Below are positions 18,700 to 46,010 of a stretch of 64,000 nucleotides of DNA, one piece after another (within the stretch, counting starts at the first letter, position 1; the number at the start of each line of letters is the position of its first letter). This stretch comes from Candidatus Phyllobacterium onerii (GTDB lineage Bacteria; Pseudomonadota; Alphaproteobacteria; Rhizobiales; Rhizobiaceae). Below the pieces are notes generated by a model. That model was not told the DNA's origin and ran no database searches. It saw only the letters and a list, made by a program, of their open reading frames with translations. Where the stretch lies: contig NZ_JAQMHX010000005.1 in NCBI RefSeq assembly GCF_028331445.1, positions 124,001-188,000 on the forward strand, given 5' to 3'. The translations under genes and the position numbers were made by a program.

Positions 18700-19263
18700 A
18701 TGCGTACCATGACCCCGTGTTTAACCCTGTTTCTGTTCGCTGCGTTGTACGGGCATGCCGAGGCGCAAAGTTTCCGCGTCTGCAACGGTTATGGCTGTAC
18801 CTTTCAAACGCCGGTGACATTGACACCGGCAGATCGCTCGCGGATTGCTTCCATCATGGCGGGAGGACGCGTTTCGCCTGCGGCCGAACGCGCTGCTGTT
18901 CGCCGTGCGGTGCAAATATTTGAGCAGCGCAGCGTCGCTGTTATCGGGGTCGTCGATCGGCCAAAGATGGATTTTGGCAAGGGTCGCGAGAGAGGCCAGA
19001 TGGATTGTGTCGATGAGTCGACCAATACGGACCATTTTCTCCGCTACCTGCAAGGCGCCGGACTATTGCACCATCATCGCGTTGCAAGGAGAGATTCGCG
19101 CGGGAGTTTCGTCGACGGCCGCTACCCACATTTTACCGCCGTTCTCAAAGATGATTCTGGAACGTCGTGGGCCGTCGACTCCTGGTATGAACCGGGAGGC
19201 GGACCGCCTGACGTGATGCTTTTGTCGGAATGGCACCGCCGAGGATATGGCGGGCAGAGATAG
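18700..19263 (+). CDS. Secreted protein of unknown function, possible Cys-His-Asp enzyme
   Basis: I do not recognise a named family. The 187-residue protein starts with a signal peptide (hydrophobic LTLFLFAALYGHA, cleavage near AEA-QS). The N-terminal part has a Cys pair (RVCNGYGCTF). The second half reads like a transglutaminase- or papain-like core: MDCVDESTNTDHFLRYL with Cys103 at a helix start, then HFTAVLKDD with His144, and WAVDSWYEPGG with Asp160, in the order Cys-His-Asp. This triad is inferred from pattern only. The gene stands alone, convergent with the DUF1127/hairpin locus. Confidence 0.75.
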   Translation: MRTMTPCLTLFLFAALYGHAEAQSFRVCNGYGCTFQTPVTLTPADRSRIASIMAGGRVSPAAERAAVRRAVQIFEQRSVAVIGVVDRPKMDFGKGRERGQMDCVDESTNTDHFLRYLQGAGLLHHHRVARRDSRGSFVDGRYPHFTAVLKDDSGTSWAVDSWYEPGGGPPDVMLLSEWHRRGYGGQR

Positions 19264-19283
19264 ACAGTAGAGAGTTTCAGAAA

Positions 19284-19320
19284 CAACAACACCCACCGCG
19301 GGAGGAGGTGCGGTGGGTGT
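19284..19320 (-). ncRNA. CCUCCUCCC hairpin RNA, third unit and terminator
   Basis: On the minus strand an 11-bp perfect stem (ACACCCACCGC...GCGGTGGGTGT, 19289-19320) displays CCTCCTCCC in its loop and is followed by a T-rich tail, so it can also end transcription. With two neighbouring hairpins of the same loop downstream of a DUF1127 gene it matches the cuckoo/CcsR class of alphaproteobacterial RNAs, whose loop is complementary to ribosome-binding sites. Confidence 0.75.
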
Positions 19321-19329
19321 CGTTTTGTA

Positions 19330-19360
19330 AAGACCGGCCGGGAGGAGGAGTGCCGGTCTT
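19330..19360 (-). ncRNA. CCUCCUCCC hairpin RNA, second unit
   Basis: A 9-bp perfect stem (AAGACCGGC with GCCGGTCTT) on the minus strand presents CTCCTCCTCCCG in the loop. It sits 9 bases from the next unit, and the spacing and loop motif match CcsR/cuckoo arrays that are processed from a longer DUF1127 transcript. Confidence 0.72.
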
Positions 19361-19367
19361 CGATCGC

Positions 19368-19394
19368 GGGAACTTTGGGAGGAGGATAAAGCCC
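19368..19394 (-). ncRNA. CCUCCUCCC hairpin RNA, first unit
   Basis: Closest to the DUF1127 stop codon, a weaker stem (GGGCTTT with AAAGTTCC, including G-U pairs) again exposes ATCCTCCTCCC in its loop on the minus strand. It is less stable than the other two and is called mainly because of the shared loop and spacing. Confidence 0.55.
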
Positions 19395-19414
19395 GGCGAT
19401 ATTCTTGTATTCGA

Positions 19415-19561
19415 TTAGCGTACTGCAGACTTCTTGGCGACGAACGGGATGTCCGAACGGGCAATGCCCAGATCGCTGAGTTCGCGGGTCGACAGACGGT
19501 TCAGCTCGGAAACCGTGTCACGATAACGGCGCCAGTTGCTGTAAGAGCGGATAAGGTTCAT
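19415..19561 (-). CDS. DUF1127 small protein
   Basis: This is a 48-residue basic protein (pI clearly high) of the DUF1127 family: MNLIRSYSNWRRYRDTVSEL, then LNRLSTRELSDLGIARSDI and a KKSAVR end. Small DUF1127 proteins in Alphaproteobacteria are stress-induced and can affect RNA turnover and phosphate or carbon metabolism. The gene directly precedes three CCUCCUCCC hairpins on the same strand, the arrangement known for RSP_6037-CcsR in Rhodobacter. The ATG at 19561 gives the standard N-terminus. I could not identify a clear heat-shock sigma promoter in the upstream 100 bases. Confidence 0.9.
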   Translation of the reverse strand: MNLIRSYSNWRRYRDTVSELNRLSTRELSDLGIARSDIPFVAKKSAVR

Positions 19562-19814
19562 TTCATTTCACCACTTCGGTTTTTTGTTTGATTGATCACT
19601 CTTGATCGTTGAGTGGAAGATAGTGGATGACGTCCCGAAGTTGCAGAGCCAAGTTTGCAGGTCAGCTATGCAATTGCTGCATTGCAACATTAATTCGCGT
19701 TAATTGTTGCGGCGCACCAGAGGCGGTTTTGAGTTGAATTTGTGCACCGCCGTGCAATTGCGTTTTCGTAGTCAGTCGCGTTACCTTCACCTGAGTAGAC
19801 TCAAGGGAGCATCC

Positions 19815-45936: not shown

Positions 45937-46010
45937 TGGTACGCCCAAGGGGAATCGAACCCCTGTTTGCGCCGTGAAAGGGCGCGCTGTCCGACCTAGA
46001 CGCGCGCCCG
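45937..46010 (-). tRNA. tRNA-Glu(UUC)-like 3' remnant, probable attL
   Basis: The minus strand shows an anticodon stem-loop (GCGCC-CTTTCAC-GGCGC, anticodon TTC), a perfect T-arm (AGGGG-TTCGATT-CCCCT) and an encoded CCA end, i.e. a tRNA-Glu 3' half. The acceptor fails: the 3' strand TGGGCGT needs ACGCCCA but the 5' side reads CGGGCGC, and the D-arm is short (7-base loop). This is what remains on the chromosomal side when a phage integrates in a tRNA gene and supplies a new 3' end at the other junction. The integrase gene starts about 150 bases away, supporting attL. A functional tRNA-Glu would be expected at attR, outside the window. Confidence 0.65.

What the first reader, a model, noticed from the sequence alone, without database searches (positions are those of the whole stretch)
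19284..19561. DUF1127 gene followed by three CCUCCUCCC hairpins (cuckoo/CcsR-like RNA array)
Downstream of a 48-residue DUF1127 gene, on the same strand, three hairpins each expose CCTCCTCCC in the loop. Two have perfect stems of 9 and 11 bp and the last is followed by a T-rich tail. The layout matches the DUF1127-CcsR operon of Rhodobacter and the cuckoo RNA family, whose loops can pair with ribosome-binding sites. Seeing three units in one cluster, one with a weaker stem, is notable and is easily missed by gene finders.
Basis: partly seen in the sequence, partly recalled or inferred. Interest (0 to 1): 0.72.

Follow-up and report, generated by a model that had tools for sequence, protein, structure and literature searches.

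The report
DUF1127 gene with ar14 regulatory RNA
A tiny protein gene and a three-hairpin regulatory RNA of an already known family (ar14/"cuckoo") appear to be read as one unit in a Phyllobacterium-like soil bacterium; the RNA probably switches off other genes by covering their ribosome-binding sites, so the finding is real but largely of a known kind.

Summary
On the minus strand, 10 nt after a 48-aa DUF1127 gene (19415-19561), lies a 121-nt RNA (19284-19404) whose three hairpins each expose CCUCCUCCC. It belongs to Rfam ar14 (RF02344; 107.5 bits, cut-off 58.8), not to the CcsR1 model (26.8, cut-off 65.3). Loops are nearly invariant in 17 Phyllobacterium-type loci, while sequence just outside the unit falls to about 55% identity; across 32 ar14 sequences 26 of 29 stem pairs show compensatory change. 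One close locus (L059), left out of the 17, keeps the gene but has lost most of the RNA.

79 of the 80 nearest DUF1127 relatives have an ar14-like RNA downstream on the same strand. The conserved promoter block lies before DUF1127 and holds TGCA-N6-GCAT about 70 nt before the predicted start, close to the published box of the LsrB-activated ar14 RNA NfeR1. Most likely one LsrB/VtlR-activated transcript yields a DUF1127 protein and a three-armed anti-Shine-Dalgarno sRNA.

The kind is known (ar14, cuckoo, CIN1 locus). Co-transcription and LsrB/VtlR control are inferred; no expression data were available.

The parts
19668..19681 (-). LysR-type box TGCA-N6-GCAT (TGCAGCAATTGCAT), 120 nt before the DUF1127 start codon and about 70 nt before the predicted transcription start
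   Evidence: conserved in the 17 Phyllobacterium-type loci aligned; box and spacing close to those published for S. meliloti NfeR1; alone not rarer than chance in the window
19618..19646 (-). putative core promoter: CTGCAA (19641-19646), 17 nt spacer, CTATCT (19618-19623)
   Evidence: read from the sequence and the alignment printed; CTATCT position; not called by the sigma-70 scan
19415..19561 (-). DUF1127 protein, 48 aa
   Evidence: PF06568, 56.4 bits; identity at codon positions 1/2/3 0.965/0.987/0.849
19284..19404 (-). ar14 family sRNA with three anti-Shine-Dalgarno hairpins, starting 10 nt after the DUF1127 stop codon
   Evidence: RF02344 107.5 bits, E 6.8e-19, model positions 1-123 of 123; covariation in the family
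19363..19400 (-). hairpin 1 (weak, interrupted stem), loop CCUCCUCCC at 19377-19385
   Evidence: -9.9 kcal/mol
19329..19361 (-). hairpin 2 (10 pairs), loop CCUCCUCCC at 19340-19348
   Evidence: -14.2 kcal/mol for its 9-pair core
19285..19324 (-). hairpin 3 (15 pairs), loop CCUCCUCCC at 19300-19308; probable intrinsic terminator with a modest U tail
   Evidence: -23.0 kcal/mol for its 12-pair core; not called as a minus-strand terminator by the scan

Best explanation
One transcription unit of a Phyllobacterium-like bacterium. A LysR-type regulator, most likely LsrB/VtlR, binds a TGCA-N6-GCAT box about 70 nt upstream of the start and activates one transcript. That transcript carries the 48-aa DUF1127 reading frame and, 10 nt after its stop, an ar14 sRNA whose third hairpin ends transcription. 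The RNA is released by processing or works as a 3' part of the messenger. Its three exposed CCUCCUCCC loops pair with GGGAGGAGG-like ribosome-binding sites of other messengers, largely transporters by analogy with NfeR1, and block their translation. Shown here: family membership, structure supported by covariation, predicted open loops, conserved linkage, a conserved promoter block. Inferred: co-transcription, LsrB binding, processing, targets and repression.
For: Rfam ar14 at 107.5 bits. Covariation: 26 of 29 pairs with two-sided change in 32 ar14 sequences, 95.1% of cells paired against 74.9% shuffled and 36-48% with slid partners. Loops 1.000, 0.987 and 1.000 mean pairwise identity in 17 loci (L059 left out), the rest of ar14 0.90, the first 100 nt after it 0.55, distal upstream 0.56. 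79 of 80 DUF1127 relatives (the best 80 of 235 found) have an ar14-like hit of 23.5 to 115 bits downstream on the same strand, 71 of them at 47 bits or more. Two DUF1127-ar14 pairs in the own genome. The stretch between stop codon and RNA is poorly conserved (0.62 for the 10-nt bin there), so no second promoter is apparent at the junction. TGC-N7-GCA lies 100-155 nt upstream of the start codon in 53 of 80 loci; shuffled mean 2.8, maximum 9 in 200 rounds. The box is at -70 from the predicted start; the published LsrB-bound box of NfeR1 is at -72 to -60 (PMC10746234, passages). Of the 16 ar14 loci without DUF1127 within 1.5 kb, 10 have the box at -66 to -72: 9 of 12 from other genomes (L015, L018, L021, L023, L025, L026, L035, L037, L043) and 1 of 4 from the own genome, L002. 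A trxB gene with a LysR-type gene beside it is in the genome, the arrangement published for lsrB (PMC11975290, passage). VtlR binds and activates the promoter of a DUF1127-type gene, atu1667, in A. tumefaciens (PMC7486931, sections 9 and 10 and passages) and positively regulates three DUF1127 genes in B. melitensis (PMC12595884, passages).
Against: No transcript data for this genome. The box alone is not rarer than chance in the window (5 found, 4.1 expected). The window promoter is 4 mismatches from the Brucella VtlR 15-mer, as good as about one in seven shuffled upstream regions (113 of 800). 27 of 80 loci lack TGC-N7-GCA at the expected place, though 20 of these 27 are within 3 mismatches of the VtlR 15-mer. 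The spacer between box block and CTATCT is variable (0.49 in one bin). The sigma-70 scan finds no promoter, and the minus-strand terminator tail is modest. In L059 protein and box are kept while the RNA is largely lost. Three of the six own-genome ar14 copies (L003, L004, L006) show no TGC-N7-GCA within 330 nt upstream. The 80 loci are related, so counts are not independent, and the 32 aligned sequences were chosen by an ar14 search.
Confidence: 0.8

Rival explanations
1. CcsR-type system in the strict sense: the hairpins are separate sRNAs cut from a stress-induced (RpoH) DUF1127 transcript, with the DUF1127 protein binding and maturing them.
For: Same order of DUF1127 gene and sRNA hairpins as ccaF1-CcsR1-4 in Rhodobacter (PMC10253847, passages); a sub-threshold CcsR1 match of 26.8 bits.
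Against: CcsR1 cut-off not reached, ar14 matched full length; the conserved upstream block is of LysR type (RpoH not scanned); RNA binding is not found for Salmonella YjiS, another DUF1127 protein (PMC12501420, passages).
Confidence: 0.15
2. The hairpins act only in cis, as terminator and 3' shield of the DUF1127 messenger, without targets in trans.
For: Hairpin 3 looks like a terminator, and scores as one on the + strand; the RNA directly follows the gene.
Against: The loops are more conserved than the rest of the RNA, and the loop cores TCCTCCC, CTCCTCCC and CTCCTCCC are invariant in all 32 aligned ar14 sequences, standalone ones included; a shield needs no fixed loop. Published action of NfeR1 on ntrB through these motifs (PMC10746234, passages).
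Confidence: 0.07
3. The RNA has its own promoter inside the DUF1127 gene and is independent of it, as NfeR1 is independent.
For: Standalone ar14 copies have the box directly upstream, including one in this genome (L002, box at -72).
Against: Directly upstream of this copy lies the DUF1127 coding region; its only TGC-N7-GCA within 330 nt is at -277, before DUF1127 (L001); the junction is poorly conserved.
Confidence: 0.1

Closest known systems
ar14 sRNA family (Rfam RF02344), with NfeR1/Smr14C2 of Sinorhizobium meliloti
   Same: Full-length match above cut-off; three hairpins; CCUCCUCCC loops; upstream TGCA-N6-GCAT box at a similar distance from the start
   Different: NfeR1 has its own promoter; here box and promoter lie before a DUF1127 gene and the RNA follows the gene by 10 nt
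ccaF1-CcsR1-4 operon of Rhodobacter sphaeroides (CcsR1, RF02791)
   Same: DUF1127 gene followed on the same strand by sRNA hairpins of the CCUCCUCCC kind and a terminator
   Different: Below the CcsR1 cut-off; one three-hairpin ar14 RNA instead of four CcsR RNAs; DUF1127 of 48 instead of 71 aa; LysR-type box found, while Rhodobacter has an RpoHI/RpoHII promoter
Cuckoo RNA family and CIN1 locus (Reinkensmeier and Giegerich 2015, paper not held; known here through PMC10253847)
   Same: CCUCCUCCC hairpins next to a short DUF1127 gene
   Different: No difference seen, but the original definition could not be applied
VtlR/LsrB-activated DUF1127 genes (atu1667 of Agrobacterium, three genes of Brucella)
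   Same: Short DUF1127 gene; LysR-type box upstream in the window
   Different: In the passages seen no ar14 RNA behind these genes is mentioned; PMC7486931 leaves open whether atu1667 makes a small protein or a regulatory RNA

Membership tests
ar14 (RF02344) | covariance model score above the gathering score of 58.8 bits | tested here: met
   107.5 bits, positions 1-123 of 123
ar14 (RF02344) | three hairpins with unpaired CCUCCUCCC and variable stems | tested here: met
ar14 (RF02344) | expressed trans-acting sRNA that represses through the loops | not testable with these tools
   no expression data or bench work
CcsR1 (RF02791) | covariance model score above 65.3 bits | tested here: not met
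   26.8 and 16.5 bits
CcsR1 (RF02791) | RpoHI/RpoHII promoter before the DUF1127 gene | not tested
   no RpoH scan was run; the conserved block found is of LysR type
Cuckoo RNA / CIN1 locus | CCUCCUCCC hairpins associated with a short DUF1127 gene | tested here: met
Cuckoo RNA / CIN1 locus | match to the published thermodynamic matcher | not testable with these tools
   paper not held, program not on hand
LsrB/VtlR regulon | TGCA-N6-GCAT box near the published distance from the start | tested here: met
   box at -70 from a predicted, unmapped start; box alone at chance level in the window
LsrB/VtlR regulon | match to the Brucella VtlR 15-mer | tested here: inconclusive
   window 4 mismatches; 49 of 80 relatives at 3 or fewer against 20 of 800 shuffled
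LsrB/VtlR regulon | regulator binds and activates | not testable with these tools
   needs gel shift and deletion
NfeR1 orthologue | standalone gene with its own promoter directly upstream | tested here: not met
   DUF1127 directly upstream, nearest box at -277 before DUF1127; L002 fits this better

The most novel reading that the evidence does not exclude
A conserved dual-output operon: LsrB/VtlR switches on, from one promoter, both a DUF1127 protein and an anti-Shine-Dalgarno RNA with three or more arms, in Phyllobacterium-, Ochrobactrum/Brucella- and Aurantimonas-type bacteria. If so, effects of VtlR or of the DUF1127 loci that were credited to the small proteins may be partly due to the RNA behind them.
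Probability: 0.55. Interest if true: 0.5.

Novelty: new member of a known kind. Interest (0 to 1): 0.33.

Why it matters
It places two separately published threads on one transcript: LsrB/VtlR control of small DUF1127 proteins, and LsrB control of the anti-Shine-Dalgarno ar14 RNA NfeR1. Anyone who deletes or overexpresses such a DUF1127 gene should check that the RNA close behind it (10 nt in the window, often up to about 90 nt in relatives) is left as it was. The element itself is an ordinary family member.

Tried and rejected
Strict CcsR membership: rejected, below cut-off. Chance or GC-rich artefact: rejected. A small protein instead of an RNA: a 62-aa + strand frame crosses the stretch (19230-19418); stem covariation and fixed loops point to an RNA on the minus strand, and that frame was not tested further. 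6C RNA: 32.8 bits against a cut-off of 47. Autoregulation through the DUF1127 ribosome-binding site: the sequence before its start codon has no GGAGG (read), so simple loop pairing is unlikely. Attenuation by an upstream frame, as reported for an S. meliloti DUF1127 gene (PMC12218461, passages): the predicted leader here is only about 50 nt; not tested further.

Target search: GGAGGAGG-N4-9-ATG gives 31 places in the own genome against 7 for the reversed pattern. Such motifs are ribosome-binding sites anyway, so this is no evidence of targeting. 30 of the 31 were fetched and translated, 18 with frames of 100 aa or more; I chose 9 of these for Pfam after looking at them, and 7 of the 9 were transport proteins. 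The choice was not blind, so no enrichment is claimed.

Plasmid records: a distant search with the unit found 21 records, none covering 80% of the query, identity 60-80%; it added nothing and was not followed.

Literature: the cuckoo paper and the CcaF1 paper are not held. A search for ar14, sRNA and Sinorhizobium together found 0 papers. No paper joining LsrB/VtlR, DUF1127 and ar14 turned up in the listings; of the papers cited I saw passages, and of PMC7486931 also two whole sections, never a whole text.

Rows dropped before counts: L059 was left out of the conservation profile and of the 20-row alignment, because its RNA is degenerate; L003, L004 and L006 were left out of the 32-row alignment.

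Full report
What is there. On the minus strand a 48-residue DUF1127 gene occupies 19561-19415. Ten nucleotides after its stop codon a 121-nt RNA element begins and runs to 19284. Rfam assigns it to ar14 (RF02344) over the full model with 107.5 bits against a cut-off of 58.8. CcsR1 reaches only 26.8 of 65.3 bits, and 6C RNA 32.8 of 47. The stretch folds into three hairpins with z = -6.3 and 0 of 200 shuffles as stable. Each loop shows CCUCCUCCC, unpaired with mean probability 0.995-1.0, also when a 346-nt stretch from the leader to past the terminator (19615-19270) is folded. The motif as such is common: 47 copies in the 6.0-Mb genome against 46 for the reversed motif. Three within about 90 nt are not, with about 3e-6 expected per genome.

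Is it conserved as an RNA? I aligned 32 ar14 sequences: the window copy, 29 high-scoring hits from 29 other genomes of the family, and 2 of the 5 other copies in the own genome (L003, L004 and L006 left out). 26 of 29 stem pairs show changes on both sides that keep the pair; 95.1% of cells are paired against 74.9% in shuffles and 36-48% with slid partners. These sequences were chosen by an ar14 search and so lean towards the structure. In 17 Phyllobacterium-type loci (window, L044-L058, L109) the loops have mean pairwise identities of 1.000, 0.987 and 1.000 (L054 has one change in loop 2), the rest of the RNA 0.90, the coding region 0.93 (third codon positions 0.85), and the 100 nt after the RNA 0.55. 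One exception: L059, a second copy in a genome whose first copy (L050) is intact, keeps DUF1127 (94% identity) and the box but only a remnant of the RNA (23.5 bits). I left it out of the 17.

Whose genome? Of 7 loci with an identical DUF1127 protein, 6 are in named Phyllobacterium and 1 in a record called Rhizobiales bacterium (L045-L051). The own genome holds 6 ar14 matches, 5 above the cut-off, and 8 DUF1127 matches, 7 above it. In 2 of the 6, DUF1127 lies directly upstream on the same strand. The window copy is the only one of the six with the exact nonamer in all three loops.

Linkage. With a model built from those 32 sequences, 79 of 80 DUF1127 relatives have a match downstream on the same strand, 71 at 47 bits or more; the weaker 8 are seven loci of the Pseudochrobactrum type and L059; the exception, L120, has it on the other strand. 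The 80 are the best of 235 relatives found, so close relatives are favoured. Starting from ar14 instead, 19 of 35 loci have DUF1127 within 1.5 kb, 7 of them upstream as in the window and 12 downstream only. In the wider family, 116 of 121 genomes have ar14 and 116 of 121 have DUF1127.

Control region. The conserved unit begins about 160 nt before the start codon and ends with the third hairpin, with a variable spacer inside the promoter. It contains TGCAGCAATTGCAT at 19668-19681, about 70 nt before the start predicted from a conserved CTATCT. For S. meliloti NfeR1, an ar14 RNA, the published LsrB site is TGCA-N6-GCAT at -72 to -60 (PMC10746234, passages). TGC-N7-GCA is found 100-155 nt upstream of the start codon in 53 of 80 DUF1127 loci against a shuffled mean of 2.8. 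Among 16 ar14 loci without DUF1127 nearby, 9 of the 12 from other genomes have the box at -66 or -67, and 1 of the 4 from the own genome, L002, at -72. Some DUF1127 loci match the Brucella VtlR 15-mer quoted in PMC12595884 instead, two of them exactly (L107, L112); the window does not match it well, with 4 mismatches. The box alone is no rarer than chance in the window; the case rests on position and conservation. The genome has a trxB gene with a LysR-type gene beside it, the arrangement reported for lsrB in Rhizobiales (PMC11975290, passage). That this LysR protein is LsrB rests on this arrangement alone.

How it most likely works. LsrB/VtlR activates one transcript that gives the DUF1127 protein and the RNA; the loops then cover ribosome-binding sites of other messengers. 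The last step is published for NfeR1 and ntrB and is carried over here by analogy. What the DUF1127 protein does is open: RNA binding is reported for CcaF1, and contact with the kinase PhoR for Agrobacterium (PMC12501420, passages).

Verdict. The element is a new member of a known kind. The layout has a name in print, CIN1 locus (PMC10253847, passage). What I did not find in the listings is a paper that puts the LsrB/VtlR box, the DUF1127 gene and the ar14 RNA together as one unit; two key originals were not available to me, so this is not a claim of priority.

Noticed in passing
window 19592-19612 (-): The predicted 5' leader of DUF1127 holds an almost invariant TCAACGATCAAGAGTGATCAA with a small palindrome (GATCA...TGATC) in 17 Phyllobacterium-type loci. 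Its role is unknown.
   Followed up: no
window 19289-19320 (+) and 18700-19263 (+): Hairpin 3 also scores as a terminator on the + strand, where a 187-aa frame without a Pfam hit ends shortly before: probably a terminator shared by convergent genes.
   Followed up: partly
L063, L065, L066, L075 and others; L097, L102, L103, L116; G040:C10:168153-168757: Longer arrays: four CCTCCTCCC in several Ochrobactrum/Brucella-type loci, five to eight in Jiella/Aurantimonas-type loci, and three tandem ar14 behind one DUF1127 in G040.
   Followed up: partly
L083 and L064: Records titled Bacillus subtilis SK6B4 and a Xylophilus MAG hold DUF1127 loci like those of Pseudochrobactrum and Brucella-type bacteria; contamination or wrong labels are likely.
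   Followed up: no
L039, L041, L042 just upstream of the ar14 match: A further CCTCCTCCC precedes the three-hairpin element (last 100 nt printed); PMC3927594 (passage) describes a four-hairpin relative, SmelA099.
   Followed up: no
window 45940-46003 (-): A weak tRNA match, 30.8 bits against a cut-off of 29, possibly a tRNA remnant.
   Followed up: no
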